NCBI RefSeq assembly: GCF_900199205.1
Contig: NZ_OBMJ01000001.1
Coordinates: 3,475,001 to 3,539,000 of the forward strand
Direction: 5' to 3'
DNA from: Streptomyces sp. 1331.2
GTDB lineage: Bacteria; Actinomycetota; Actinomycetes; Streptomycetales; Streptomycetaceae
Length of the DNA stretch: 64,000 nt
Under the pieces are notes generated by a model. It worked only from the letters and a program-made list of their open reading frames with translations, was not told the origin of the DNA and did not search any database. Below, piece by piece: positions 3,727-58,564 of the stretch. The first letter of the stretch is position 1. Every line of letters starts with the position of its first letter. Made by a program: the position numbers and the translations under genes.

Positions 3727-5541
3727 ATGGCATCTCGTGCACGCGTACGCGCCCCCCAACTGGTCGGGGCTGGCGGTTGGCTGAACACCGGCGGCAAGGA
3801 GCTCACGCTCGCCGACTTCCGGGGCAAGATCACCATCCTGGACTTCTGGACCTTCTGCTGCATCAACTGTCTGCACGTCCTGGACGAGCTGCGGGAGCTG
3901 GAGGAGAAGCACCGCGACACCGTGGTGATCGTCGGGGTGCATTCGCCGAAGTTCGTGCACGAGGCCGACCACCAGGCCGTGGTGGACGCCGTCGACCGGT
4001 ACGAGGTGCACCACCCGGTGCTGGACGACCCGGAGCTGGCCACCTGGAAGCAGTACGCCGTCCGGGCCTGGCCGACGCTGGTGGTGATCGACCCGGAGGG
4101 TTACGTCGTCGCCCAGCACGCCGGTGAGGGCCACGCCCATGCGATCGCCCGGCTGGTCGAGGAGCTGGAGGCCGAGCACGCCGCGAAGGGCACGCTGCGC
4201 CGCGGCGACGGCCCGTACGTGGCGCCCGAGCCGACCGCGGGGGACCTGAAGTTCCCCGGCAAGGCGGTCCGGCTGCCGAACGGCCACTTCCTGGTCGCGG
4301 ACTCCGGTCACCACTCGCTGGTCGAGCTGGCCGAGGACGGCGAGACGGTGGTGCGCCGGATCGGTGACGGGCAGCGCGGCCTGGTGGACGGCACCAGCCC
4401 CCGGTTCAGTGAGCCGCAGGGCCTGGCGCTGCTGCCGGAGGGCTCGGCGTACGACGTGGTCGTCGCCGACACCGTCAACCACGCCCTGCGCGGCCTGCGG
4501 CTGGCCGACGGCAGCGTCACCACGCTGGCCGGCACGGGCCGCCAGTGGTGGCAGGGCTCGGCCACCGAGGGCCCGGCCCGCGAGGTGGACCTGTCCTCGC
4601 CGTGGGACGTCGCCTGGTTCGACGGCCGGGTGTGGATCGCGATGGCGGGCGTGCACCAGCTGTGGGCGTACGACCCGGCCACCGGCACGGTCGGCGTCGC
4701 GGCGGGCACCACCAACGAGGGCCTGGTGGACGGGCCCGCCGCCGAGGCCTGGTTCGCCCAGCCCTCCGGCCTCGCGGTCTCGGCGGACGGCGGGAAGCTC
4801 TGGGTCGCCGACTCCGAGACCTCCGCGCTGCGCCTGGTTTCACGTGAAACAGGGAGGGTCGAAACCGCCGTCGGCACCGGCCTGTTCGACTTCGGCCACC
4901 GCGACGGCGCCGCCGACCAGGCCCTGCTCCAGCACCCGCTGGGCGTCACCGTGCTGCCGGACGGCTCGGTGGCCGTCAGCGACACCTACAACCACGCGCT
5001 GCGCCGCTACGACCCGGCGACCGGCGAGGTCAGCACGCTGGCCACCGACCTGCGCGAGCCCTCCGGGGCGGTGCTGGTGGACGGCGACATCGTGGTGGTC
5101 GAGTCGGCCCGGCACCGGCTGACCAGGCTGCGGCTGCCGGAGGAGGCGGTGCGGGTCGACGCGGTGGCGCACCGCACCCAGCGCGCGGCCACCGAGGTCG
5201 CGCCGGGCGCCTTCCGGCTGGACGTGGTCTTCTCGGCGCCGAGCGGCCAGAAGCTGGACGAGCGCTACGGGCCGTCCACGCGGCTGCTGGTCAGCTCGAC
5301 CCCGCCCGAGCTGTTGGTCTCCGGCGCGGGCGCGGACAGCGACCTCTCGCGCGAGCTGGTGCTCTCCGACGAGGTCACCGAGGGCGTGCTGCACGTCTCG
5401 GCGATGGCCGCCTCCTGCGACGACGCCCCGGAGATCGAGTTCCCGGCCTGCCACGTCCACCAGCAGGACTGGGGCGTGCCGGTGAAGCTGGTCGCCGACG
5501 GCGCCCGCCGCCTCCCGCTGGTGCTGGCCGGGATGGAGTAG
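3727..5541 (+). CDS. Thioredoxin-like / NHL-repeat protein (NHLRC2-like)
   Basis: 604 residues. An N-terminal thioredoxin-fold domain (about 1-165) has FWTFCCINC, with Cys45-x-x-Cys48 as the redox pair. It is followed by a six-bladed NHL beta-propeller (about 185-480; repeats such as HFLVADSGHHSLVEL, YDVVVADTVNHALRG and GSVAVSDTYNHALRR) and a C-terminal beta domain (about 490-604). This is the arrangement of the NHLRC2 family, whose bacterial role is not established; a cytosolic thiol-disulfide function is likely, as no signal peptide is visible. A perfect parS sequence is embedded in the coding region at 4837-4850. A strong bidirectional terminator follows. Confidence 0.9.
   Translation: MASRARVRAPQLVGAGGWLNTGGKELTLADFRGKITILDFWTFCCINCLHVLDELRELEEKHRDTVVIVGVHSPKFVHEADHQAVVDAVDRYEVHHPVLDDPELATWKQYAVRAWPTLVVIDPEGYVVAQHAGEGHAHAIARLVEELEAEHAAKGTLRRGDGPYVAPEPTAGDLKFPGKAVRLPNGHFLVADSGHHSLVELAEDGETVVRRIGDGQRGLVDGTSPRFSEPQGLALLPEGSAYDVVVADTVNHALRGLRLADGSVTTLAGTGRQWWQGSATEGPAREVDLSSPWDVAWFDGRVWIAMAGVHQLWAYDPATGTVGVAAGTTNEGLVDGPAAEAWFAQPSGLAVSADGGKLWVADSETSALRLVSRETGRVETAVGTGLFDFGHRDGAADQALLQHPLGVTVLPDGSVAVSDTYNHALRRYDPATGEVSTLATDLREPSGAVLVDGDIVVVESARHRLTRLRLPEEAVRVDAVAHRTQRAATEVAPGAFRLDVVFSAPSGQKLDERYGPSTRLLVSSTPPELLVSGAGADSDLSRELVLSDEVTEGVLHVSAMAASCDDAPEIEFPACHVHQQDWGVPVKLVADGARRLPLVLAGME
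4837..4850. other. parS centromere-like site
   Basis: GTTTCACGTGAAAC is a perfect 14-bp palindrome identical to the consensus parS site bound by ParB in Streptomyces and many other bacteria. It lies inside the thioredoxin/NHL gene, where it encodes parts of LVSRETG. Streptomyces chromosomes carry many parS sites clustered around oriC, so this implies the window is origin-proximal. I found no second copy in the window. Confidence 0.85.
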
Positions 5542-5571
5542 CGAGCAGCCCGGGGAGTCCCCTCCCACAGA

Positions 5572-5616
5572 CGCCGGGGCCCGGCGGACGACCGAATCGT
5601 CCGCCGGGCCCCGGCG
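5572..5616. terminator. Bidirectional intrinsic terminator
   Basis: A perfect 20-bp stem (5572-5591 with 5597-5616) and a 5-nt loop lie between the convergent thioredoxin/NHL gene and the M18 aminopeptidase gene. It has no strong U-tract, which is usual for Streptomyces terminators. Confidence 0.8.
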
Positions 5617-5633
5617 CATGCGAGGGAGGGGGC

Positions 5634-6941
5634 TCAGCCCTCCAGGAAGGCCTTGATCGCGCTCGCCAGCAGGTACGGGTCCTCCGCGCCGCACAGCTCG
5701 CGCGCCGAGTGCATGGACAGCGCCGCGATGCCGCAGTCCACCGTCTTGATGCCCAGCCGCGCCGCCGTGATCGGGCCGATCGTCGTACCGCAGGGCATCG
5801 CGTTGTTGGAGACGAAGGACTGCCACGGCACCCCCGCCTTCTCGCAGGCGGCCGCGAACACCGCCCGGCCGACACCGTCGGTCGCGTAGCGGTTGTTGAC
5901 GTTGACCTTGAGGATCGGCCCGCCGTTCGGCATCGGGTGGTGCCCCGGCTCGTGCCGCTCGCTGTAGTTCGGGTGGACGGCGTGGCCCATGTCCGAGGAG
6001 AGGCAGACGGTGCCGGCGAGCGCCCGGGCGCGGTCCTCCGGGGTGCCGCCGCGCGAGTGGATCGAACGGTCCAGGACGTTGCCGAGCAGCGGGCTCTGCG
6101 CGCCGGTGTCGGACTCGCTGCCGGTCTCCTCGTGGTCGAAGGCGGCCAGCACCGGGATGTACGGCAGCTCGGCGGCACCGTCGGCGGTGGCGACGGCGGC
6201 GAGCGCGGCGGTGGCCGCGTGCACCGAGAGCAGGTTGTCCAGGCGCGGGCCGGCCAGCAGCTCGCGGTCCCGGCCCAGGTAGGAGGCGGGCTGGACGTCG
6301 TGCGTCATGAGGTCCCAGCCGACCACGTCGGCGGCGGCCACCCCGGCCCGCTCGGCGACGTAGGAGATCAGCGCGCCCTCGTCGACCGGGCCGAGGCCCC
6401 AGATCGGGGTGAGGTGGCGCTGCTTGTCGAGCTTCATGCCCTCGTTGACCTGGCGGTCCAGGTGGATGGCGAGCTGCGGCACGCGCAGCAGCGGCTCGTC
6501 CAGCTGGACCAGGCGGACGGTGCCGTCCTTGAGCGCGAGTCTGCCGGAGATGCCGAGGTCGCGGTCCAGCCAGGTGTTCAGCGGGACGCCGCCGTAGATC
6601 TCCACCGCGACCTGCCGCCAGCCCGCCGAGCCGGTGTCCGGCAGCGGCTTGACGCGCAGGTTGGGCGAGTCGGTGTGGGTGCCGACGATCCGGAACGGGG
6701 TCTCCGGGCCCGCACCCTCCGGCAGGTACCAGGCGATCAGCGCACCGCCGCGGATCAGGTAGCGCCCGCCGGCGGAGCCGTCCCAGGCGTCCGTCTCGGC
6801 GACCTGCCGGAAGCCCGCCTTCTCCAGCCGCTCCGCGGCGCTCGCGACCGCGTGGTACGGGGACGGCGAGGTGCCGAGGAACGCGATCAGATCGTCGCTG
6901 TGCGTCCGGTCGAAGAATGCCTGGCGGGCGGCGGTCGACAT
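5634..6941 (-). CDS. M18-family aminopeptidase (aspartyl aminopeptidase type)
   Basis: 435 residues, family length. Metal-site motifs are in order: GTHTDSPNLRVKP (His), the Asp-containing PRLDNLLS, DHEETGSESDTGAQSPLL (Glu and Asp), SSDMGHAVHPNY (Asp) and CGIAALSMHSARE (His). It removes N-terminal residues, probably acidic ones, from peptides in the cytosol using a two-metal centre. The ATG at 6941 is preceded by AGGAGCAGT and begins right before the conserved region. It is transcribed alone, convergent with the thioredoxin/NHL gene. Confidence 0.92.
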   Translation of the reverse strand: MSTAARQAFFDRTHSDDLIAFLGTSPSPYHAVASAAERLEKAGFRQVAETDAWDGSAGGRYLIRGGALIAWYLPEGAGPETPFRIVGTHTDSPNLRVKPLPDTGSAGWRQVAVEIYGGVPLNTWLDRDLGISGRLALKDGTVRLVQLDEPLLRVPQLAIHLDRQVNEGMKLDKQRHLTPIWGLGPVDEGALISYVAERAGVAAADVVGWDLMTHDVQPASYLGRDRELLAGPRLDNLLSVHAATAALAAVATADGAAELPYIPVLAAFDHEETGSESDTGAQSPLLGNVLDRSIHSRGGTPEDRARALAGTVCLSSDMGHAVHPNYSERHEPGHHPMPNGGPILKVNVNNRYATDGVGRAVFAAACEKAGVPWQSFVSNNAMPCGTTIGPITAARLGIKTVDCGIAALSMHSARELCGAEDPYLLASAIKAFLEG

Positions 6942-43912: not shown

Positions 43913-49199
<5,287 letters not shown>

Positions 49200-49446: not shown

Positions 49447-49578
49447 ATGAGCGAGATCACCAACAACGAGCTGCTGCGCGTCGACGCGATCGTGCAGGAC
49501 CTGGTGGAGCTCGACGCCACCGAGTACGGGACCGAGGCCCTGTCGATGACCCAGGCCACCTTCTCCGACTACATGTGA
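49447..49578 (+). CDS. Putative RiPP precursor peptide, 43 residues
   Basis: The peptide is acidic and Leu/Val-rich in its first half (MSEITNNELLRVDAIVQDLV), as in leader peptides. It ends with a Ser/Thr/Tyr/Phe/Met-containing tail (TEALSMTQATFSDYM) that would be the core. It has no Cys, so a lanthionine or thiazole class is excluded. GAGGGAGAACGCC gives a good ribosome site. A hairpin 14 bases past the stop codon separates it from the operon, the usual way to over-express a precursor. It is too short for homology-free certainty; context is the main evidence. Confidence 0.65.
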   Translation: MSEITNNELLRVDAIVQDLVELDATEYGTEALSMTQATFSDYM

Positions 49579-49591
49579 TCGCGGCTCCGGG

Positions 49592-49617
49592 GGCGGCGCG
49601 GCCCGTGTCGCGCCGCC
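49592..49617. terminator. Attenuator-like hairpin after the peptide gene
   Basis: A 9-bp G/C stem (49592-49600 with 49609-49617) and 8-nt loop. Another 125 bp follow before the next start codon, including a repeated GATCGGCACC. Confidence 0.55.
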
Positions 49618-49741
49618 TCCGGGCTCCCGGCCGAGCCACGAAGGCCGGGCGACCGGAGCCAAGCGATCGGCACCAAGTGAACGGCGCCAAGTGATCGGCA
49701 CCGGGCGTCAGGTGACAGGCGATCAGAGAGAGGTGCGAACG

Positions 49742-50494
49742 ATGCCGGTCCGGTCGGACCCCCATCCGGTGGTGGAGCGCTTCGCCCGGGTGCGCGAGAC
49801 CGCCTCGGCCCGCTACGGGCCCGACTCGCAGGCCATCACCTTCCTGCTGTACGAGGAACTGGTCTCGATGCGGACCCTGCTCGCCCGGGACCTCGGCTGC
49901 GCCCCCGTGCGGAGCCGGATAGCCGAGCTGCTGCCCGCCATCCAGCGCCGCTTCGACGCGGCCGCGGCCCCCGCACCGCCGCAGCAGTGCCACCGGACGG
50001 TGTCCGTGGACCCCACGGTGATCGAGTTCGACCGCCGCTTCTTCGAGGCGCGGTACCGGCCCGCCCTGCAGGCCCTGGGCCGGCGCGCCGTTCGGCTCCG
50101 CGACCGGGACCAGGCGCTCGCGCTGCTCACCACCGGGGCCTCCTACCTCTATGCGGTCGACGACGAGGGTGCCCTGTGGGTGTGGCCGCAGCCCCACCGG
50201 CTGGCGGACGTGATGTTCGGCTGGGCGCCGGGCCGCCCGGTCGGGGAGCCCCGCGTCGTGCACCCCATGCTCGTCCCCGACCGGCTCAGGGTCAGGGCGG
50301 CCGGGGAACTGGTGGTGACGGGCTCGCCGGAGCAGGTCTTCGTCACCGCCAACCTGAAGTCCGGGCACTTCCGGCCGCCGCGCGCCTGCGCGGTGGAGGC
50401 CCGCCGGGCGGTGGTGAGCGCCCTGGAGCTGCCCAGCCCCGCCGACGTCGACGTGTTCACCATGCCGCCACCGACGGCACCCCCGACCTGTTGA
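49742..50494 (+). CDS. Unrecognised protein of the peptide cluster
   Basis: 250 residues, soluble, no signal peptide. The N-terminal half is helical (HPVVERFARVRETASARYG, FLLYEELVSMRTLLARDLG). The C-terminal half is strand-rich with HPMLVPDRLRVRAAGELVV and VFVTANLKSGHFRPPRA. No catalytic motif of a known RiPP enzyme is seen. A GAGAGGTG ribosome site lies 7 bases before the ATG. It is the first large gene of a six-gene run with gaps or overlaps of 46 bp or less, so it is presumably part of the modification machinery or a precursor-binding partner. Confidence 0.7.
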   Translation: MPVRSDPHPVVERFARVRETASARYGPDSQAITFLLYEELVSMRTLLARDLGCAPVRSRIAELLPAIQRRFDAAAAPAPPQQCHRTVSVDPTVIEFDRRFFEARYRPALQALGRRAVRLRDRDQALALLTTGASYLYAVDDEGALWVWPQPHRLADVMFGWAPGRPVGEPRVVHPMLVPDRLRVRAAGELVVTGSPEQVFVTANLKSGHFRPPRACAVEARRAVVSALELPSPADVDVFTMPPPTAPPTC

Positions 50495-50509
50495 AAGGTG
50501 AGTCACCCG

Positions 50510-51298
50510 ATGGAGACGGCAGCCGCGGCCACCGCCCCCTGCGACGACGACATCCGCATCGGCGGCATCCACAGCGACGACATCCACATCGGTGTGGAGC
50601 ACGAGTGCAAGTGGCAGCTCCCGCCGGCCGCCGCCGCGGACCCGGCTGCCTTCGCCCGGACGGCGGTGTTCGCCGGGCTCGTCGCCGCGGCCGCCGAGCC
50701 GCAGGACTACCTGCAGTCGGTGCTGTACCTGGACGACGCCTCCGGCAGCCTCGCCCGCGCCGGCCACTCGCTGAGCATCGTCGTCAACAGTGGCGCCCCG
50801 TCCGATACTTGCGTCGTCGTGTGCAAGCAGACGATCCACCGCCGGGGTTGGCGCGACGGCCTCGAACTGCGCCAGCGGGTACCGCACCGGCAGGTCGGCG
50901 CCCGCCTCCACGACGGCTCGCTGCTGCCCGTCGCCCACGTGCGGAGGCTCGGCCTGGTCACCGGGGCGCTGCAACCGGCCGGTGTAGCCGTCCAGCGCAG
51001 GTACAAGTGGTACGGGCGGACCACCGACGGCACCGAGGTCTGCTGCAGCCTGGACCACGTCGAGTTCGGCGCCCCGACCACCCCCCGCGCCGAACGCCGC
51101 CGCTATGACTGCGTCGAGATCGAGGTCAACTCTTCGCTCCCGGCCGTGCTGGCCGGACTCGACCGGCTGGCACGGGAGTTGGACGTACGGCTCGGCGTGC
51201 CCCGGGACCGCAGCAGCAAGTCCCAGCTCGCTCGGGAAGCCGACCGGGACGGCCGCGAGGCCGACCGGGCCGACCGGGACGGCCGGGCCGATGGGTAG
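50510..51298 (+). CDS. CYTH / triphosphate tunnel metalloenzyme-like protein
   Basis: 262 residues. VEHECKWQLP holds the ExExK signature of the CYTH superfamily. Further tunnel residues fit in CVVVCKQT (Lys), VQRRYKWYGR (Arg/Lys), CVEIEV (Glu-x-Glu) and SSKSQLA. CYTH enzymes act on triphosphates such as ATP, ThTP or polyphosphate with Mg or Mn. One inside a peptide operon suggests nucleotidyl or phosphoryl transfer to the peptide (inference). The ATG at 50510 follows AAAGGTGAG; the C-terminal tail DRDGREADRADRDGRADG is repetitive. It overlaps the MFS gene by 8 bp. Confidence 0.75.
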   Translation: METAAAATAPCDDDIRIGGIHSDDIHIGVEHECKWQLPPAAAADPAAFARTAVFAGLVAAAAEPQDYLQSVLYLDDASGSLARAGHSLSIVVNSGAPSDTCVVVCKQTIHRRGWRDGLELRQRVPHRQVGARLHDGSLLPVAHVRRLGLVTGALQPAGVAVQRRYKWYGRTTDGTEVCCSLDHVEFGAPTTPRAERRRYDCVEIEVNSSLPAVLAGLDRLARELDVRLGVPRDRSSKSQLAREADRDGREADRADRDGRADG

Positions 51299-52559
51299 CG
51301 CCGCCGTCCCCGCGCGGCTGGGCGGCGCCTTCGCGCTGATCTGGACCGGGCGGTCGCTGTCCCTGCTGGGCGGCTACGTCCAGTACCTGGCGCTCCCGCT
51401 GTGGATCCGGCAGGTCTCCGGCTCGACCGTCGCCGGGCTCCTCGCCCTCGGAATGAACTTCGTGCCGCAAATCGTCTGCGCCCCCTTCGCGGGGGTGCTC
51501 GCCGACCGCTTCGACCGCCGCCGCCTGGTGATCGCCGTCGACCTCGCCGCCTTCGCGGTGGCCGCGTCGCTGGCGCTGGGCATCGACCCGCACCGGCTGG
51601 GCTGGGTCTACCCGCACCTCGTCCTGCTCCAGGTGCTCTCCGCACTGAGCGTCCCCGCATTCCTGGGCATGCTCCCCGACGTGGTGCCCGCCGGCCGGCT
51701 GCTCGCCGCGAATTCCCTGCTCAACGTCTCGGCCGGAGCGTCCGTGACCATCGGACCGCTGCTCGGCACCACGCTGCTGACGCACTCCTCGATCACCGTG
51801 GTCGTGTGGATCAACGCGCTCTCCTACCTGGTGGCGGCCGCGTGCATGCTGCCCAAGGCCCCCGGCAGCGCCGCCCACGCGGACGCACCCGGGCTCGGGC
51901 AGGTCCGCACCCAGCTGTGGCAGGGGCTGACCGCGGTCCGCACCGACCCGGTGCTGCGGGCAACCGTGGCCGCCGAGGCGCCCTGGAACCTGTGCTTCGG
52001 CGCAGCGAGCGAACTCGTCCTGATGCACTTCGGCGCGACCGCGCTCAAGCAGGCCCCCGGGCTGTTCGGGCTCGGCGCCGGCCTGGGCAGCCTCTCGGTG
52101 ACCCTGGTGCTCGCCCGGATCCGCCGCGAGGTGCCGGCCGCAACCCTGTTCGTGGTCGCGGTCCTCGGCACCGCGCCGGTGGCCCTGGCGGTGGCCTGGC
52201 TCGCGGCCGACGGCGCCGTGTGGTGCGTGGTCCTCGCCGGACTGCTGCTGGGCGTGCACGCGTACCTGATCGTCATCGGCCCGACCCTGCACTGCCAGCA
52301 GCGCCCCGCGCGGCACTTGCGCGGGCGCGTCACCGCCGTCCGCCGTGCCTGGAAGGCGACGTGGCAGCTCGCCGGCATCGGGGCCGCGGCCCTGCTGACC
52401 CAGTGGCTGCCGGTGCTCGCGGTGGTCGCCGGTGGCGGTGTGCTGGCGACCGCGGCCGCGATCCCGTGGGCCTGGCGGGCACTGCGGGCCGACGGGCCGT
52501 CCCGGACGGCGGGCTCCCCCGGCCGGGTGGCGCTGCCGACCGGGGGAGGTGCCCGGTGA
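51291..52559 (+). CDS. MFS exporter of the peptide cluster
   Basis: 422 residues with 12 predicted helices. ADRFDRRRLVIAVDL between helices 2 and 3 is the MFS motif A region. The overall pattern resembles enterobactin-exporter/MFS-3 family members. The ATG overlaps the CYTH stop codon, and its own stop codon overlaps the next GTG. It is the likely exporter of the finished peptide or a self-resistance pump. Confidence 0.85.
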   Translation: MGSAAVPARLGGAFALIWTGRSLSLLGGYVQYLALPLWIRQVSGSTVAGLLALGMNFVPQIVCAPFAGVLADRFDRRRLVIAVDLAAFAVAASLALGIDPHRLGWVYPHLVLLQVLSALSVPAFLGMLPDVVPAGRLLAANSLLNVSAGASVTIGPLLGTTLLTHSSITVVVWINALSYLVAAACMLPKAPGSAAHADAPGLGQVRTQLWQGLTAVRTDPVLRATVAAEAPWNLCFGAASELVLMHFGATALKQAPGLFGLGAGLGSLSVTLVLARIRREVPAATLFVVAVLGTAPVALAVAWLAADGAVWCVVLAGLLLGVHAYLIVIGPTLHCQQRPARHLRGRVTAVRRAWKATWQLAGIGAAALLTQWLPVLAVVAGGGVLATAAAIPWAWRALRADGPSRTAGSPGRVALPTGGGAR

Positions 52560-53740
52560 GTACGGCCCGGGCTCGTGCCGCGGCCGCCGTCCGTCCCGGT
52601 GGTGCGGTCATCGTGGACCTTCCGGCGGGGCATCTCGACGACCCGCCGGGCCGGGCGGGCCTGGCCGCACTGCTGGCCGCCGTGCTGAACGAACCGCGGT
52701 GCGGCGGTGCCGCGGCGCGCGCCGCCGCCGAAGGCTGGCGCACCCGGCACCACCTGGACGACCACAGCTCGTCCTTCGCGTACTGGTCACCCCGGCCCGC
52801 CGACCTGGCCTCGGTCGTCCACGACCTGCGCGGTACCCGGCTGCCCGCCGGTCCGGCCGGGGAGGACCTGCTCGCCCGCCTGCGGGCCCGGCTGGCGGCG
52901 GCCGACGCGGGACACGGTGCGCCCCTGCTGGCCCTGGTCAGGCGTCAGTTGGAACGGGCTTCCTGGGGGTCCGTCGGGGACGAGCGGGCCGGGGGCGCCG
53001 GGGGCGCCACCACCCGTGGCACCGCGGCCGGCGTGACGCCCGCCGACCTGGCCCGGTCGGTCGACCTGCTGGTGTCCCGGGCGCAGGTGTACGACGCCAC
53101 CACGGCCCCGGACGGCGGCCACCGGCCGTCGCCCGGGCCGGTGCGGCTCGCCGACGGCGACGCACCCCGGTGGCACGGCGGGCTCGACCTCGCCGTCCGT
53201 GCCGACAGCGATGCCCGGGTCGCGGTCCGCCTGCCCGTGCAGGCCCCGCCGCCCGGGGTCCTCGACCTCCTGGTGGAGGTGCTGGGCAACGGCACCGACG
53301 GGCGGCTCCACCGCGAGCTGCGCCACCGCCACCACCTGGCCTACGGATTCACCGCCGCCTGCGCCCGGCAGCACGGCCTGACCTCGATCAGCGCCACCGC
53401 CACGGTGGCGCCGCAGCACGCCGCGGCGGCGCTGCGCGTACTGACGGCGGCCCTCCGCCGGCTGGCGGACGGCGCCGGCTCCGAGGAGACCCGCTCGGCG
53501 CGGTGGCGGTGCCGGGCCGGGCTGCTCGCCGAACTCGACGGCCCGTACGGCCCCGCCGACGAACTCCGCCGACACGCGCTCGGACAGCGCGGCATCCGGG
53601 AGCGGCTGGCGGCGGTGGCGGACCTCGACGTCCTGCCGGGCCTGTCCTTCACCCCGCTGCCCCCAGCGGTCGCGGCGGTCGGCCCCTTCGAGGAGCACCA
53701 CCGCCGGCAACTCGCCGCAGCCTACGAGGAGATCCGGTGA
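52556..53740 (+). CDS. M16 peptidase-like subunit, non-catalytic
   Basis: 394 residues. The C-terminal half has LGNGTDGRLHRELRHRHHLA then YGFTA, the substrate-binding domain signature of M16 proteases (compare R-x5-Y of the beta subunits). The N-terminal half lacks the HxxEH zinc motif. It therefore matches the non-catalytic partner of M16B heterodimers. It starts with GTG inside the MFS stop codon (GTGA) and ends inside the GTG of the catalytic partner. Confidence 0.8.
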   Translation: MSTARARAAAAVRPGGAVIVDLPAGHLDDPPGRAGLAALLAAVLNEPRCGGAAARAAAEGWRTRHHLDDHSSSFAYWSPRPADLASVVHDLRGTRLPAGPAGEDLLARLRARLAAADAGHGAPLLALVRRQLERASWGSVGDERAGGAGGATTRGTAAGVTPADLARSVDLLVSRAQVYDATTAPDGGHRPSPGPVRLADGDAPRWHGGLDLAVRADSDARVAVRLPVQAPPPGVLDLLVEVLGNGTDGRLHRELRHRHHLAYGFTAACARQHGLTSISATATVAPQHAAAALRVLTAALRRLADGAGSEETRSARWRCRAGLLAELDGPYGPADELRRHALGQRGIRERLAAVADLDVLPGLSFTPLPPAVAAVGPFEEHHRRQLAAAYEEIR

Positions 53741-54954
53741 ACGGTACGGAAGCGGCCCCGGCGGTACCGGGGCCCGCGTCGGACTCCGTCGAGTCCTTCG
53801 ACGCCGGCGGGCTCCGCGTCGAGTGGGAGGCCCTGCCGTGGGCCCGCTCGATCGGCGCCGCCCTCGTGGTGGGCTGCGGCTCCCGCGACGACCCGGCGGG
53901 CCGGGAGGGCACCGCCCACCTGGCCGAGCACCTCCAGGTGCTCGCCGACCCTTCGGCCGACGGCCCCGACGGCCCCGACGGCCCCGACGGCTCCGACGAC
54001 CTCGGCGGCATCCCCCTGGACGCGGTGACCGGCATCGACCGGACCACCTTCCGTGGCACGGGCGACCCGGACGACCCGGGACGGCTGGTGCGCCGCCTCC
54101 TCGGCATCGCGTCCGGGCACCGCCCCCGCACCACCCCGGACGTCTTCGAGGGCGAACGGAACGCGGTGCTCCTGGAGACCCGCCGCATGGACCACCGGCC
54201 CGTCCTGCGGCTCGGGCCCGTGCTCGCCGCCGCCGCGGCCGACGAACCGGGGCTGGACGCCATCGGCCGCACCACCACGCGGTCCGTCGGCCGGATCACC
54301 CCGACGGACGTGCACGGGGTGGTCGAGCGGGGGTACTCGGGCGCCAACGCCCGGCTCTTCCTCGCCGGTCCGCCCGACGCGGCCGACGGCGTGCGGGCGG
54401 CCCTCGACCGCCACCGGCCGGCCGGCGGGCCGTCCCGGGCCTCCGGCGGTGCCGTCGCCGTGCCCGACGGGCTCCGCGAGCACGGCGACCTGGACGGCCT
54501 GCACGGACTGGACGGCCTGGTGGCGGTGACCCTGCTGCGCCCGCGCGGCACCCCGTCGCTCGCCCTCGACGCGCTGCTGGACGGCCGGGGTCCGATCGTG
54601 GGCCACCTGGCCGGCGACGGCCTGCGGCCGCTCGGCCGCACCACCGTCGAAGGCCGGGCCGAGCGCGTCGACATGGTCGTGTGGCGCGCCGCCGACCTCG
54701 CCGCCCCGCTCGAACGACACCTGGCCCAGCTGCTCGCGGACGACTGGCGCACCTCCCTGGCGGCGCTCACCAGCCGACTGCGCAGCGCCCGCGAGGCCGC
54801 CCGGCAGTGGCAACTGGCCACCCCCCTCGGCCGGGTGGGCGACGCGGCCGACCGCTGCACCTTCCCTGGGCCCCGGTGCGGCGGGCAACGGATCGCGCTC
54901 TGGCGCGTCACCGACGGCACCCCCGAGTGCCTGGCCCGGCACCCCCTCTCCTAG
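53737..54954 (+). CDS. M16 zinc peptidase, catalytic subunit
   Basis: 405 residues. GREGTAHLAEHLQVL carries the inverted zinc motif HxxEH and VFEGERNAVLLETRRM the distal Glu ligand. An Asp/Gly/Pro repeat (DGPDGPDGPDGSDD, about 69-82) sits in a loop. Together with the preceding gene it forms an M16B protease pair, as found in RiPP clusters where it removes leaders or trims them stepwise. Leader cleavage of the 43-residue peptide is inferred. Confidence 0.82.
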   Translation: MNGTEAAPAVPGPASDSVESFDAGGLRVEWEALPWARSIGAALVVGCGSRDDPAGREGTAHLAEHLQVLADPSADGPDGPDGPDGSDDLGGIPLDAVTGIDRTTFRGTGDPDDPGRLVRRLLGIASGHRPRTTPDVFEGERNAVLLETRRMDHRPVLRLGPVLAAAAADEPGLDAIGRTTTRSVGRITPTDVHGVVERGYSGANARLFLAGPPDAADGVRAALDRHRPAGGPSRASGGAVAVPDGLREHGDLDGLHGLDGLVAVTLLRPRGTPSLALDALLDGRGPIVGHLAGDGLRPLGRTTVEGRAERVDMVVWRAADLAAPLERHLAQLLADDWRTSLAALTSRLRSAREAARQWQLATPLGRVGDAADRCTFPGPRCGGQRIALWRVTDGTPECLARHPLS

Positions 54955-55000
54955 CCGAACCCAAAGCCGAACCCGAAGACGAAGACGAATCGGAGCAACC

Positions 55001-56101
55001 GTGGACTTCCCCAGCACCTTCGACGCCCGCGGGCTGCGTCTGCGTCCCTACCGGGACTCGGACGTGCCGGTCCTCGTGGCCAACGGCAACGACCCCGACA
55101 CCGTGCGCTTCATGTCCGGCACCCCGGGCGCCGCCACCGCCGAGACCATGCGGGCCCTGCTGGCCTCGGCTGCGTCCCGGGCCCGGCAGAACCCCGACCG
55201 GCTCGGTTACGCCGTCGCCGACCCGGACGGCGACGAGTTGCTGGCCGGTGCCGTCGTCCACCTCACCCGCCGCCGCTCCAGCGCCGAACTGGGCTTCTGG
55301 GTCGCCCCGGCCGCCCGGGGCCGCGGCGTGGCGACGACGCTCGCCCGGGCCCTGACCGAGCTGTGCTTCGCCCGGGGCCTCCACCGGGTCGAGCTGTTCA
55401 TCCGGGACGAGAACGTCCGCAGCCAGCGGGTGGCGCTGGCCGCCGGCTTCCGCCGGGAGGGGGAGCTCCGCGCCGTCCTGCCGGGAGCCGGCACCGAGCG
55501 GCACGCCGCCGCACTCTGGTCCCGGCTGCCGACCGACGACGCCCCCACCCCCCGGCGGCTGCCGGACCTGCCGAACGGCGAACTGACCGACACGATGGTC
55601 ACCCTGCGCCCGGTCGGCCCGGACGACGTCGCCGCCCTCGCCGCGCTGCACGGACACACCCCGGTCGGCGCACCGGGCGCGCCGCAGGACCGGGACGACC
55701 TCGCCCGGCACTGCGCCCGGGCACCGGCCCGCTGGCTGGCCGGCGAGCGCGCCGACGTGCTCGTGGTGGGCGCCGCGGGCCAGGTGGCGGCCGAACTGAC
55801 CCTGGAGTACCGGGCCCCCGGGGCCGGTCGCGCCGAGCTGCGGGCCGTCCTCGCCCCGGGCGGGCCGGCTGCGGCGCTCGCGACGCGGGGCGTCGAACTG
55901 CTGGCGCGCTGGGCGTTCGGCATCGGCGTCGAGCTGCTGGTCGCCACCGAGGCGCCCCAGGACGCCCGGCTGCGCGGCGTCCTCACCCAGGCCCGGTTCG
56001 ACCGTCAGGAGCTGTTCGCCGCCCGGGACGACGGCCGCCGGCTCACCGGTGGGCTGCGGGCGGACCGAGCCTGGTCAGCGTCAGCCGTGCATGCGGGGTG
56101 A
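55001..56101 (+). CDS. Tandem GNAT acetyltransferase
   Basis: 366 residues made of two GNAT domains. The first (about 1-175) is complete: ELGFWVAPAARGRGVATTLA and RVELFIRDENVRSQRVALAA then GFRREG. The second (about 190-350) keeps the fold but its acetyl-CoA loop is degenerate. It could acetylate the N-terminus or a side chain of the processed peptide, or act in self-protection (inference). GTG start, 46 bp after the protease gene. Its last 59 bp overlap the convergent cupin-like gene. Confidence 0.8.
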   Translation: MDFPSTFDARGLRLRPYRDSDVPVLVANGNDPDTVRFMSGTPGAATAETMRALLASAASRARQNPDRLGYAVADPDGDELLAGAVVHLTRRRSSAELGFWVAPAARGRGVATTLARALTELCFARGLHRVELFIRDENVRSQRVALAAGFRREGELRAVLPGAGTERHAAALWSRLPTDDAPTPRRLPDLPNGELTDTMVTLRPVGPDDVAALAALHGHTPVGAPGAPQDRDDLARHCARAPARWLAGERADVLVVGAAGQVAAELTLEYRAPGAGRAELRAVLAPGGPAAALATRGVELLARWAFGIGVELLVATEAPQDARLRGVLTQARFDRQELFAARDDGRRLTGGLRADRAWSASAVHAG

Positions 56102-56510
56102 GGTGGGCGTGCCACCGCCAGCCGGGCGGCACGTACAGCACCTCGTCGGACCGCAGGCGGCAGCGGAAGCTGTCCTGTGCGGCCCTGCCGGTTCCGGTGA
56201 GCAGCGTCCAGGACCCGGCCCCGGCGGTGTGGCGCACCAGGAGACGGCCCGCGGACCCGGCCGACATCGGCCGGTTTCCCCCCTCGTCCGCGCGGTGGGT
56301 CTCGATGGTGACCGGTGTGCCGGTCAGCCGTTCGAGCGCGCGGGCCTCCGCCGTGAGGGCGGCGACGGCGTCCGGGCGGCCGTCGGCCGGGCGTTCCTCC
56401 TCGGGCCACAGGATGCCGGGGCCGTCACCGCGGCCCAGTACGTCGAGGAACCCGGCGAGTTCCCGCACGTGGGGCGGGATGTCGCCGGTCGCCGATGGCG
56501 CGGTGTTCAT
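56043..56510 (-). CDS. Cupin-like (JmjC-related) small protein
   Basis: 155 residues. The C-terminal half has RLRSDEVLYVPPGWRWHAHL then TPHARLTLTR, close to the second metal motif of cupin-4/JmjC proteins. The first H-x-D/E motif is not evident, so it may not bind iron in the usual way. It is read towards the peptide operon and overlaps the GNAT gene end to end by 59 bp. Start ATG at 56510. Confidence 0.65.
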   Translation of the reverse strand: MNTAPSATGDIPPHVRELAGFLDVLGRGDGPGILWPEEERPADGRPDAVAALTAEARALERLTGTPVTIETHRADEGGNRPMSAGSAGRLLVRHTAGAGSWTLLTGTGRAAQDSFRCRLRSDEVLYVPPGWRWHAHLTPHARLTLTRLGPPAAHR

Positions 56511-56646: not shown

Positions 56647-57705
56647 TCAGGGAGCGGCGGCCAGCTCGGTCGACGTCCCGCCCAACGGAGCCCCGTCCGG
56701 CGGCTCCCTGTCCAGCGGCCCCCGGGCGGCGGCCCGGAAACCGGCCTGGAACCGGCTCCCGGCGCCCAGTTCGTCCATGATGTCGGCGATGTGCCGACGG
56801 GCGGTGCGCAGCGACATGCCCAGGCGGCGGGCCACCGCCTCGTCCTTCAGGCCGGCGGCGAGCAGCCGGACGATCGTCTCGTCGATCTCCCGCGAGACCT
56901 CTTCGAGTTGGCGGCCGGCCGCGGTGGTGAACGGCGTGGCCCGGTCCCAGGTCTGCTCGAAGATCTCGCACAAGTAGGCCACGGTGGACGGCTCGCGGAT
57001 CACCACCGCCCCCCAACTGTCGTCCTGGGCCGGGATGAACGCGATCTCGCGGTCGAAGACGATCAGCCGGCCGAACAGCTCGTGCGCCGTGCGGTACTCC
57101 CCGCCCAGGGCGGAGGCCGCGGCGACGTACGCCTGGCTGGGCCCGTTGAAGCGGGCGGTGTGGTGGTAGAGGGTGCGGAGCCGGATGCCGCGTTCCAGCA
57201 TCGCCCGGTCGCGGCCCAGGGCCTCCTCCATCGCCTCGGGGGCCCGGGAGCCGCCGCCCGGCTGGCTGGTCAGGACCTCCTGGCGGCAGCGCTCCGACGC
57301 CCGGTTGAGGGCGCTGCGCACGAGGTGGACGTTGGCCAGGACTTCCACCGCCCCGAACCGGGAGCGGTGCCGGTCGTAGGACGGTGTGAAGCGGTTCAAC
57401 TCCCGTTCGATGACGTCCAATTGCCGTCGGCAGTCGCGGATCCGCGCCTCCACGGGGGCGCTGAGCTGGGCCGCGGCGGTGTCGGGCGGCACCGCGGTGA
57501 TCCCGTACGGGCCGTCCGGGCTGCCCTGGAGCAGCCGGACGCGCAGCAGGCGGCCGATGCCGGCGACGACGGCCTCCCGGCTGACCCCGGTGGCCGCGGC
57601 GATGGCGGCCGTGTCGGCGGTCTCGTGCTCCAGGACCCAGCCGTAGACGGCTATGTCGGAGTCCTGCAGTTCCTGGACGTCGTCCAGCGTCTCGTTCGGT
57701 CCCAA
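56647..57705 (-). CDS. TrmB-like / LuxR-type transcriptional regulator
   Basis: 352 residues. An N-terminal winged helix (about 18-60: TAAIAAATGVSREAVVAGIG) is followed by a long middle domain and a C-terminal LuxR helix-turn-helix (about 265-325: LAAGLKDEAVARRLGMSLRT then ARRHIADIM). This architecture is common beside actinomycete peptide and polyketide clusters. The first start candidate is TTG at 57705, preceded by GGGGGGC. It reads in the same direction as the cupin-like gene 136 bp downstream and is the probable switch of the cluster. Confidence 0.82.
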   Translation of the reverse strand: MGPNETLDDVQELQDSDIAVYGWVLEHETADTAAIAAATGVSREAVVAGIGRLLRVRLLQGSPDGPYGITAVPPDTAAAQLSAPVEARIRDCRRQLDVIERELNRFTPSYDRHRSRFGAVEVLANVHLVRSALNRASERCRQEVLTSQPGGGSRAPEAMEEALGRDRAMLERGIRLRTLYHHTARFNGPSQAYVAAASALGGEYRTAHELFGRLIVFDREIAFIPAQDDSWGAVVIREPSTVAYLCEIFEQTWDRATPFTTAAGRQLEEVSREIDETIVRLLAAGLKDEAVARRLGMSLRTARRHIADIMDELGAGSRFQAGFRAAARGPLDREPPDGAPLGGTSTELAAAP

Positions 57706-58006
57706 TGGCCTTGCCCCCCACCGATCTGTCAGGCCCCTTGGAGAGCCGTCCGGTTCAGTCGATCAGCCTGCGGCACCGGGGGGCGCGCGGCACGGAGGCG
57801 CGCCGGGCGGTGCCCGTGGGGCAGGCCGCGCGCGGCGGTGCCTCCTCTGTCACGAAGCGCCCCTTATGCGGCCTGGCTTCTTGCTGTCAGGGGGTTTGCT
57901 GACGGGGAGCGTGGCGCCGTACGGGGCCGGGCCGGGGGCAGGCTGTTGTTCGTCCACAGCCGGCGACCCCCGGACGACAGGTCCGGGAGAGAACAGGAGA
58001 ACCACC
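57706..58006. other. Divergent intergenic region between regulator and secreted peptide genes
   Basis: 301 bp. It should hold both promoters. The plus-strand end has AGGAGAACC before the ATG at 58007. There is a GTCCACA (57951-57957) and a weak dyad GGACGACAGGTCC; no gene or repeat is seen. Confidence 0.5.
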
Positions 58007-58240
58007 ATGGCGCGACCGTCCCTTCCCGTCCGACTCGCAGTGGCCGCCGGGCTGCTCCTCCTCTGCCCGGCCGCCCCCGCTGCCGCGGCCGCGCCGGCTC
58101 CGGACGCGGGATCCACCGTCAACCGGGCGGCCGCGGCAGGGACCGCCACCACCGTCGCCGCCGAGCCCGCTCCCGACGGCCAGGACGGCCGGCACCGCCC
58201 CGAGCGCCCTCACCGCAAGGACACTTCCTGGGGCGGCTGA
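58007..58240 (+). CDS. Small secreted protein, 77 residues
   Basis: A signal peptide (MARPSLPVRLAVAAGLLLLC to about residue 28) is followed by a short Ala/Pro/Thr-rich chain and a basic/charged end (DGRHRPERPHRKDTSWGG). No family recognised. The ribosome site AGGAGAACC is well placed. It lies between the cluster regulator and an HTH-only protein and may belong to the same regulon. Confidence 0.6.
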   Translation: MARPSLPVRLAVAAGLLLLCPAAPAAAAAPAPDAGSTVNRAAAAGTATTVAAEPAPDGQDGRHRPERPHRKDTSWGG

Positions 58241-58309
58241 CCCGGCCCGGCCCCGCCCGCCACGTCCGCACGACCCGACCCGGTCCTACCCGACCCCAGG
58301 AGTCCGCTC

Positions 58310-58564
58310 ATGGCCCGCACCACCGAGGCGCCACACGCCTTCACCCCGAGGGAACAGCAGGTACTGGTCCTCCTGTCGGGAGGTGAGACCTACCGGGGCA
58401 TCGCCCGCCGACTGGGCATAAGCCAGCACACCGTCGACACCTACCTGCGGCACCTGCGCACCAAGACCGGCACCGCCAACCGCACCCAACTCGCCGTCCT
58501 CGCCGCCCAACTGGGCTACCGCCCCACTCCGCCCACCACCGCTTCCGGCCACAGGCCGGCGTAG
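58310..58564 (+). CDS. LuxR-type HTH-only protein
   Basis: 84 residues consisting of little more than a LuxR helix-turn-helix (FTPREQQVLVLLSGGETYRG, then IARRLGISQHTVDTYLRHLR). It has no receiver or sensor domain, like GerE. Such small LuxR proteins activate development or secondary-metabolite genes. CCCCAGGAGTCCGCTC precedes the ATG. It follows the secreted peptide by 69 bp. Confidence 0.85.
   Translation: MARTTEAPHAFTPREQQVLVLLSGGETYRGIARRLGISQHTVDTYLRHLRTKTGTANRTQLAVLAAQLGYRPTPPTTASGHRPA

What the first reader, a model, noticed from the sequence alone, without database searches (positions are those of the whole stretch)
49447..56510. Candidate undescribed peptide-modification cluster
One transcription unit links a 43-residue leader-like peptide, an unrecognised 250-residue protein, a CYTH-fold protein, an MFS exporter, an M16 protease pair and a tandem GNAT, with a regulator and cupin-like gene beside it. 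Stops and starts overlap at three junctions. Precursor, processing protease, exporter and regulator are RiPP hallmarks, yet no LanB/C/M/KC, YcaO, radical SAM, ATP-grasp or lasso enzyme is seen. A class whose chemistry depends on the CYTH protein and the unknown protein would be new.
Basis: partly seen in the sequence, partly recalled or inferred. Interest (0 to 1): 0.85.

Follow-up and report, generated by a model that had tools for sequence, protein, structure and literature searches.

The report
Peptide cluster with CYTH-fold enzyme
A small set of genes that looks like a factory for a chemically altered peptide recurs in ten actinobacterial strains, and the enzymes that would do the altering (a triphosphate-binding "tunnel" protein and a partner related to bacterial toxin domains) are of kinds for which we found no report in such factories; the product itself is unknown.

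Summary
A 43-residue peptide gene precedes U250 (unrecognised, 250 residues), a CYTH protein, an MFS exporter, an M16 pair and a tandem GNAT; three junctions overlap. All ten loci found (Kitasatospora, Streptomyces, Couchioplanes, Pilimelia) keep peptide-U250-CYTH-MFS-M16a-M16b, with 1-4 peptide copies (17 in all, 12 distinct). The CYTH call is confirmed by fold (best VIA Z 18.9) and profile. U250 matches no library family, but its C-terminal part is homologous to C-terminal domains of RHS/eCIS-type polymorphic toxins. The peptides share a leader ending in an invariant Gln-Ala, then a variable 5-15-residue tail with Ser/Thr always third; none has Cys. One M16 protein has HxxEH in 10 of 10 loci, its partner in none. 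A strong hairpin follows the peptide gene in every locus.

Best reading: a RiPP-like pathway in which the CYTH/TTM protein and U250 modify the precursor, the M16 pair cleaves near Gln-Ala and MFS exports; GNAT or JmjC enzymes tailor by lineage. The chemistry is unproven. The regulator beside it belongs to a separate module with a putative secreted DTSWGG peptide. Rare and, in the papers searched, undescribed.

The parts
49447..49578 (+). precursor peptide gene, 43 aa: leader with R11, V16, L19, A31, L32, Q36, A37 invariant in the family
   Evidence: homologues in 10 of 10 loci, 17 copies, 12 distinct; Shine-Dalgarno-like stretch upstream
49552..49557 (+). codons of invariant Gln36-Ala37, proposed M16 cleavage site (inference)
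   Evidence: Q and A in 12 of 12 distinct peptides; a related M16 pair is reported to cut after QAAD (PMC10885120 passage)
49558..49575 (+). proposed core, TFSDYM in the window; its third residue is Ser40, S in 11 and T in 1 of 12 distinct peptides
49579..49741 (+). spacer with a strong GC-rich hairpin between precursor and enzymes
   Evidence: long stem in this gap in 10 of 10 loci (mononucleotide shuffles only; the L019 and L022 gaps are identical)
49742..50494 (+). U250: N-terminal helical part plus C-terminal domain related to RHS/eCIS toxin C-termini; putative partner enzyme
   Evidence: AF2 pLDDT 82.9; hhalign E 1.2e-6, score 47.4 against a maximum of 19.5 in 40 shuffles; 45 invariant residues in 10 sequences, not counting the start Met
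50510..51298 (+). CYTH / triphosphate tunnel metalloenzyme (TTM) fold protein, putative ATP-using modification enzyme
   Evidence: VIA Z 18.9 to E. coli ygiF; hhalign to 30 CYTH-family sequences E 1.1e-5; E30, E32, K34, K106, R115, E119, R164, K166, D182, E203, E205 invariant in 10 of 10
51291..52559 (+). MFS exporter
   Evidence: Pfam MFS_1 E 7e-28; kept in all 10 loci
52556..53740 (+). M16a, subunit without HxxEH
   Evidence: Pfam M16_C E 1.1e-8; HxxEH in 0 of 10, R/Y-type motif in 9 of 10
53737..54954 (+). M16b, zinc-site subunit
   Evidence: Pfam M16 E 4.2e-5; HxxEH in 10 of 10
55001..56101 (+). tandem GNAT, lineage-specific tailoring candidate
   Evidence: Pfam Acetyltransf_3; homologues of the tandem form in L015 and L017
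56043..56510 (-). small cupin-like protein, probably part of the regulatory module
   Evidence: weak Cupin_2; homologues in 4 other cluster loci (L013, L018, L019, L022) and beside the regulator at the unrelated gene set L140
56647..57705 (-). LuxR/GerE regulator with TrmB-like N-terminus, regulatory module
58007..58240 (+). 77-aa putative secreted propeptide ending DTSWGG, candidate signal for the regulator
   Evidence: present beside the regulator in 4 of 4 cluster loci that have a close copy of it
58310..58564 (+). 84-aa GerE helix-turn-helix protein, regulatory module
   Evidence: Pfam GerE E 1e-14; homologues in 7 of 10 cluster loci, window included, and in L139-L141

Best explanation
A RiPP-type pathway with an unusual pair of modification enzymes. 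Shown by sequence: a precursor gene family always next to U250, a TTM/CYTH-fold protein, an MFS transporter and an M16 active/inactive pair. Inferred: the leader helix (R11, V16, L19) is read by U250 and/or the TTM protein; the TTM protein, with an intact triphosphate-tunnel residue set, uses ATP to activate the precursor, most likely phosphorylating (or nucleotidylating) the hydroxyl of the invariantly placed Ser/Thr at core position 3; U250 acts with it, by transfer or elimination; the M16 heterodimer cuts at or just after Gln-Ala, releasing a 5-15-residue core; MFS exports it; a GNAT (EYG-type precursors) or a JmjC oxygenase (4 of 5 loci with GEHGE-type precursors) tailors. My probabilities: RiPP-like pathway about 0.8; TTM and U250 act on the precursor about 0.6; phospho- or nucleotidyl transfer to the core Ser/Thr about 0.3; cleavage next to Gln-Ala about 0.5.
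For: Peptide, U250, TTM, MFS, M16a and M16b kept together in 10 of 10 loci (the L016 contig ends inside M16b, and the L020 M16a was found by position, 26% identity and Pfam M16_C E 4.9e-5) from Streptomycetaceae and Micromonosporaceae. Identity matrices of U250 and each partner correlate: pep r 0.88, TTM 0.96, MFS 0.97, M16a 0.92, M16b 0.93; 2, 0, 0, 0, 0 of 5000 permutations reach this (9 loci, L022 left out). Leader with 7 invariant positions, variable tail, tandem copies, no Cys. Hairpin after the precursor in 10 of 10. CYTH fold. M16 pair: as in Bcn-gP1/gP2 and PttP1/P2 (PMC8960859 passages) and LxmP1/P2 (PMC8068269 passage). M16 cleavage after QAAD: PMC10885120 passage. A JmjC gene lies directly behind a second, divergent precursor copy in L018, L019 and L022.
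Against: No product, activity or expression data. No recognisable RRE (Pfam) and no precedent for a TTM protein acting on peptides in my paper searches. U250 has no significant fold match, and the toxin domain it resembles has no activity known to me. The conserved Ser could serve the protease rather than be modified. dN/dS of the peptide (first 40 codons, 14 pairs) is only moderately low and in 2 pairs not below 1 (window/L013 0.21/0.21; L018 first against third copy 0.268/0.178). The L020 cluster is divergent: its peptide lacks some otherwise conserved residues and its M16a lacks the R/Y-type motif. All members found come from one phylum.
Confidence: 0.6

Rival explanations
1. Dehydropeptide variant: the TTM protein replaces the class V kinase (CaoK/LxmK) and U250 replaces the HopA1-like lyase (CaoY/LxmY), so the core Ser/Thr becomes dehydroalanine/dehydrobutyrine, without thioether rings because there is no Cys.
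For: Two separate enzymes plus an M16 pair as in lexapeptide (PMC8068269 passage); separate kinase and lyase in cacaoidin, the lyase being related to an effector (PMC9486802 passages), as U250 is related to a toxin domain; Ser/Thr at position 40 in 12 of 12; invariant K206, H209 and R183 in U250.
Against: U250 does not match a HopA1 profile (hhalign score 13.15, prob 0.12), and no OspF or HopA1 structure was among the rows shown. The TTM protein is not an APH-type kinase.
Confidence: 0.2
2. Scaffold model, as for PQQ: the peptide is only a carrier from which a small molecule is cut, and the M16 pair destroys the rest.
For: M16-type processing and an MFS exporter; the most conserved part (EALSMTQAxxS) is internal; M16b has a faint PqqF hit (E 0.044).
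Against: No radical SAM or other PQQ-type enzyme recognised among the 9 proteins scanned; the invariant internal residues (A, L, Q, A) are not an obvious source of a small molecule.
Confidence: 0.15
3. The peptide is an unmodified bacteriocin or signal, cut by M16 and exported by MFS; TTM and U250 serve immunity or regulation.
For: Short variable tails; tandem copies; a signalling-type module next door.
Against: TTM and U250 are kept as regularly as the transporter; unmodified 5-15-mers would need no such pair; no immunity family recognised among the 9 proteins scanned.
Confidence: 0.1
4. A defence or toxin system, because U250 shares a domain with RHS/eCIS toxins.
For: Toxin-domain homology of the U250 C-terminus.
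Against: No delivery domain found in U250; no PADLOC match for 7 proteins (5 of the window, 2 of relatives); M16 pair, MFS and precursor family do not fit.
Confidence: 0.05

Closest known systems
Class V lanthipeptides (cacaoidin, lexapeptide, pristinin)
   Same: Actinobacterial; separate small enzymes instead of one large synthetase; M16 leader protease, in lexapeptide an inactive/active pair (PMC8068269 passage); LuxR-type regulator in spr (PMC7794033 passage).
   Different: No APH kinase, HopA1 protein or Cys decarboxylase recognised among the 9 proteins scanned; no Cys in any of the 12 distinct precursors.
M16B heteromeric lanthipeptide proteases (Bcn-gP1/gP2, PttP1/P2)
   Same: One subunit with HxxEH, partner without, R/Y-type motif in the partner; a reported cleavage motif that starts with QA (PMC8960859, PMC10885120 passages).
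   Different: The precursors here are not lanthipeptide precursors (no Cys); cleavage not tested.
CYTH / triphosphate tunnel metalloenzymes (ygiF, CyaB, ThTPase, VTC polymerase)
   Same: Fold and tunnel residues ExExK, R-x-K, ExE (motif set recalled).
   Different: Members known to me act on small triphosphates or polyphosphate, not on a RiPP precursor; the window protein is too divergent for the Pfam model.
C-terminal domains of RHS / eCIS-core polymorphic toxins
   Same: U250 residues about 133-240: H..L, AAGE, N-x-SGH[FY]-x-P pattern (window numbering approximate).
   Different: U250 has its own helical N-terminal part, sits in a biosynthetic-type operon and has no delivery domain that Pfam recognises.
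PQQ biosynthesis
   Same: Small precursor and M16-type processing (recalled).
   Different: No PqqE/PqqC/PqqD counterparts recognised.

Membership tests
RiPP pathway (general) | dedicated precursor gene kept with the enzymes | tested here: met
   10 of 10 loci
RiPP pathway (general) | conserved leader, variable core | tested here: met
   7 invariant positions among 1-37; the 2-12 residues after position 40 vary in length and sequence; 12 distinct peptides
RiPP pathway (general) | dedicated protease and exporter | tested here: met
   M16 pair and MFS in all 10 loci; their action on the peptide not tested
RiPP pathway (general) | enzyme-made modification of the precursor | not testable with these tools
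   needs MS
RiPP pathway (general) | RiPP recognition element (not universal) | tested here: inconclusive
   no PqqD-type Pfam hit in the 9 proteins at E<=1; RRE-Finder not available
Class V lanthipeptide | HopA1-like pSer/pThr lyase | tested here: not met
   U250 against a 14-sequence HopA1 profile prob 0.12; own genome without PF17914 hit at E<=0.001
Class V lanthipeptide | APH-type kinase | tested here: not met
   none among the 9 cluster proteins by Pfam; the rest of the genome not searched for it
Class V lanthipeptide | Cys in the core for thioethers | tested here: not met
   0 of 12 distinct peptides
CYTH/TTM superfamily | tunnel fold | tested here: met
   Foldseek E 2.3e-9 to 5a60; VIA Z 18.9, rmsd 3.1, 199 aligned
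CYTH/TTM superfamily | ExExK plus basic and acidic tunnel residues (motif set recalled) | tested here: met
   invariant in 10 of 10
CYTH/TTM superfamily | triphosphate-dependent catalysis | not testable with these tools
   needs assay
M16B heteromeric leader protease | HxxEH in one subunit, none in the partner | tested here: met
   10 of 10 and 0 of 10
M16B heteromeric leader protease | R/Y pair in the inactive subunit | tested here: met
   pattern RL...LR..[LI]AYG in 9 of 10; not in L020; that this is the R/Y region is my reading
PQQ biosynthesis | radical SAM PqqE | tested here: not met
   no such family among the 9 cluster proteins
Polymorphic toxin | C-terminal toxin domain | tested here: met
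   homology of the U250 C-terminus
Polymorphic toxin | N-terminal delivery domain | tested here: not met
   U250 is 250 aa without any Pfam delivery domain
Polyphosphate kinase 1 | N/H domain homology of U250 | tested here: inconclusive
   fold hits at noise level; profile score 15.5 against shuffle mean 15.0, maximum 20.9 of 60

The most novel reading that the evidence does not exclude
A new RiPP class in which a CYTH/triphosphate-tunnel enzyme, with a partner recruited from a polymorphic-toxin domain, phosphorylates, nucleotidylates or otherwise ATP-activates a fixed Ser/Thr in a Cys-free precursor, giving short modified peptides (5-15 residues) released by an M16 heterodimer.
Probability: 0.35. 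Interest if true: 0.9.

Novelty: new variant of a known kind. Interest (0 to 1): 0.72.

Why it matters
If right, it would add triphosphate-tunnel (CYTH) proteins to the enzymes that modify ribosomal peptides and would extend the theme, seen with HopA1-like lyases, of effector or toxin domains recruited for peptide maturation. The six-gene core is small, recurs with tandem precursor copies and has predicted short cores, so it can be rebuilt in E. coli or Streptomyces and read out by mass spectrometry. It also shows how a cluster without any known class enzyme can be recognised from precursor conservation and gene neighbourhood.

Tried and rejected
PPK1: the best (insignificant) Foldseek row for U250 was polyphosphate kinase 1 (E 0.25; VIA Z 6.2 and 5.4); a profile test with 19 PPK1 N/H sequences gave 15.5 against a mean of 15.0 and a maximum of 20.9 in 60 shuffles, so I dropped it. 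The first try of that test used wrongly oriented loci and is void. HopA1: no profile match. PDB sequence searches with A3 and A4: no hit for A3, three rows at E 0.41-0.66 for A4, taken as chance; the one hit for the eCIS domain, a designed repeat protein, is an artefact of repeats. PADLOC: 0 matches for 7 proteins. Weak genome-search hits L006, L010, L011, L012 looked like chance reading-frame matches and were dropped before counting. Of the 297-genome family sample, 5 and 6 genomes passed E 0.001, but only 3 (G000, G131, G171) have the cluster. Plasmid tblastn with peptide and CYTH gave only the same record as U250.

Paper searches (10 in all). Nothing on point: CYTH + RiPP + precursor peptide, 0 papers; triphosphate tunnel + RiPP, 0; CYTH domain + biosynthetic gene cluster, 1, unrelated by title; six peptide strings, 0; TSWGG, 5, unrelated by listing; pheromone/LuxR/TrmB, 85 papers of which 15 were listed, none on point by title. 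The other four (3 papers; 76: 2; 77: 8 listed of 9; 106: 15 listed of 92) led to the class V and M16 papers cited; I saw passages of five (PMC7794033, PMC9486802, PMC8068269, PMC10885120, PMC8960859) and read none whole. The library holds open-licence papers only, so 'undescribed' is limited to it. antiSMASH and RRE-Finder could not be run.

Corrected on checking: a small GerE ORF in L020 that my clustering joined to the module has no match to the window's GerE protein, so it is 7 of 10 loci, not counting L020; the window cupin finds no match in L141.
Full report
Observation. The peptide starts with ATG behind a Shine-Dalgarno-like stretch and is followed by a 163-nt gap, then U250. Pfam and NCBIfam give nothing meaningful for the peptide, U250 and the window's CYTH protein.

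Relatives. In a sample of 297 genomes of the family, only the own genome, G131 and G171 carry U250 and the CYTH protein (strong matches). One of 72,556 plasmid records has it, S. sp. NBC_01343 (L022). With the window and G131 (L013) these are ten distinct loci. All ten keep peptide, U250, CYTH, MFS, M16a and M16b in that order; in L020 M16a was not found by the first tblastn but stands at the expected place with 26% identity and a Pfam M16_C match of E 4.9e-5. Couchioplanes and Pilimelia are Micromonosporaceae, Streptomyces is Streptomycetaceae. The Couchioplanes copy is closer to the window (U250 69% identical) than those of the two other Kitasatospora (48 and 47%), which points to horizontal transfer of the whole unit. 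Identity matrices agree between genes (Mantel r 0.88-0.97, at most 2 of 5000 permutations, 9 loci with L022 left out as a near copy of L019).

The peptide family. 17 copies, 12 distinct: four tandem copies in L013 (unit about 213 bp), three copies in L018, two each in L019 and L022, one elsewhere. Over the 12 distinct sequences R11, V16, L19, A31, L32, Q36 and A37 are invariant; position 40 is Ser in 11 and Thr in 1; nothing has Cys. The 2-12 residues after position 40 vary in length and sequence. Two main types: EYG type with ...QATFSD-x (window, L015, L017; L016 has QAASSD) and GEHGE type (L013, L018, L019, L021, L022); L020 is a divergent third, without the E8, L9, D23, A24 and G28 of the others. 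Selection is moderate (first 40 codons, 14 pairs): dN/dS 0.045/0.151 for window/L015, but 0.21/0.21 for window/L013, and 0.268/0.178 between the first and third copies in L018; the other informative pairs are below 1. Every locus has a long GC-rich hairpin between precursor stop and U250 start, mostly of different sequence (the L019 and L022 gaps are identical and L018 shares part; energies against mononucleotide shuffles only, z -2.2 to -6.6), as would be expected of a device that keeps precursor mRNA in excess (inference).

CYTH protein. AF2 model pLDDT 83.1. Foldseek: 65 PDB chains at E<=0.001, best ygiF 5a60 at 2.3e-9; VIA Z 18.9, rmsd 3.1, 199 aligned. Profile-profile against 30 Pfam CYTH proteins of the family: E 1.1e-5, prob 82, 169 columns. 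By sequence alone the Pfam CYTH model is only grazed (best E 0.027, 2 of 8 members). E30, E32, K34, K106, R115, E119, R164, K166, D182, E203 and E205 are invariant in 10 of 10; that these make up the usual tunnel set is recalled. So it is a plausible ATP- or triphosphate-using enzyme, not a relic.

U250. AF2 model pLDDT 82.9, no PDB match at E<=0.001. The first lead, PPK1, failed a profile test. HopA1 failed too. But a weak hit in another Kitasatospora, an eCIS-core protein, is reciprocal (E 1.9e-5 and 7.2e-6); the domain also ends a Janthinobacterium RHS protein and occurs in a Fibrella protein. Profile comparison of U250 with these three gives E 1.2e-6, score 47.4, against a maximum of 19.5 in 40 column shuffles; one of the three is the original hit, the other two were found with that hit and not with U250. 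The shared pattern is H..L, AAGE (AGG in Fibrella), N-x-SGH[FY]-x-P. For the N-terminal helical part I found no relative outside this family in what I searched. This parallels class V lanthipeptides, whose lyase CaoY is related to the effector HopA1 (PMC9486802, passages with the abstract), but it is a parallel only.

M16 pair and cleavage site. M16b has HxxEH in 10 of 10, M16a in 0 of 10; the RL...LR..[LI]AYG pattern, which I read as the R/Y region, is in 9 of 10 M16a. This is the layout of Bcn-gP1/gP2 and PttP1/P2 (PMC8960859 passages) and of LxmP1/LxmP2 (PMC8068269 passage). A review states that PttP1/P2 cut after a QAAD motif (PMC10885120 passage). Every peptide here has QA at 36-37, so a cut there would release cores of 5-15 residues with Ser/Thr at the third position. 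This is a prediction.

Accessory genes. The tandem GNAT goes with EYG-type precursors (window, L015; L017 on the other strand; L016 ends too early); L019 and L022 have only a single-domain GNAT on the other side of the precursor. A JmjC-type oxygenase (Pfam JmjC_2, E 2.6e-11 to 9.6e-14 in L018, L019, L021 and L022) occurs with GEHGE-type precursors in 4 of 5 loci, not in the L013 stretch, and sits directly behind a second, divergent precursor in three of them. Both fit tailoring enzymes. L015 has a further M16-like protein upstream.

Regulatory module. The LuxR/TrmB gene of the window has close homologues (67-73%) in three other cluster loci (L013, L016, L018; L022 has only a more distant, partial one), and in these four, and in no other of the ten fetched stretches, a small ORF with a hydrophobic N-terminus ends in DTSWGG. 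In 70 Kitasatospora genomes the DNA pattern for DTSWGG-stop (TCN serine, TGA stop) occurs 11 times, against 0 for the reversed pattern; 7 of 11 lie within about 1.5 kb of a close homologue of the regulator (an eighth, L138, has only a weak match to the helix-turn-helix end, three have none), and 10 of 11 look like prepeptides by eye. Regulator, DTSWGG propeptide and a GerE protein recur beside other genes in L139, L140 and L141, which have none of the peptide cluster's core genes. The cupin-like protein is with them in L140 (E 2e-9) but not in L139, and in L141 only by eye; at the peptide clusters it is in 5 of 10 loci, two of which (L019, L022) lack the close regulator, so its place in the module is likely but less sure. 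In more distant regulator homologues (L122, L125, L127) the neighbouring prepeptide carries DDRWG repeats instead (30 loci with 1.5 kb flanks scanned, 7 with DTSWGG, 3 with DDRWG). This looks like a peptide-pheromone circuit; I found no report of it.

Verdict. The cluster is real, rare, conserved, mobile as a unit and has RiPP anatomy. It meets the general RiPP features that can be tested by sequence and fails defining features of class V lanthipeptides and PQQ. What the CYTH protein and U250 do is the open question, and it can be tested directly. I rate it a new variant of a known kind (a candidate RiPP class), not categorically new, because the chemistry is not known.

Noticed in passing
window 56647-58564; L139, L140, L141: Regulatory module: LuxR/TrmB regulator, secreted-type propeptide ending DTSWGG and a GerE protein, sometimes a cupin-like protein; recurs beside other gene sets. 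11 DTSWGG-stop sites in 70 Kitasatospora genomes (reversed pattern 0), 7 beside a close regulator homologue; more distant homologues have DDRWG repeats. Looks like an undescribed peptide-pheromone circuit.
   Followed up: partly
L005 742-2406; L096 1-3198; L097 2224-3363: A C-terminal domain (H..L, AAGE, N-x-SGH[FY]-x-P) for which Pfam gave no name in L005, shared by eCIS-core and RHS toxin-like proteins and by U250.
   Followed up: partly
L018 15115-16508; L019 15466-16890; L022 15541-16965: A second, divergent precursor copy directly followed by a JmjC-type oxygenase at the end of the cluster.
   Followed up: partly
L013 (reverse strand) 5509-6293: Four tandem precursor genes in units of about 213 bp, 0-2 nucleotide differences between copies, only I/L changed in the protein.
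   Followed up: yes
L015 8015-9718: Additional M16-like protein (567 aa, HLVEH seen by eye) upstream of the precursor in Couchioplanes.
   Followed up: no
window 43913-46339 and 46653-49199: Divergent pair of secreted carbohydrate-active proteins: GH10-ricin-GH62 and ricin-BNR/sortilin-like; a similar ricin-type protein also lies near the cluster in L018 (17845-19617).
   Followed up: no
window about 49655-49705: Short direct repeats (GCCAAG[CT]GATCGGCACC twice, with a diverged copy between) in the gap before U250, seen by eye.
   Followed up: no
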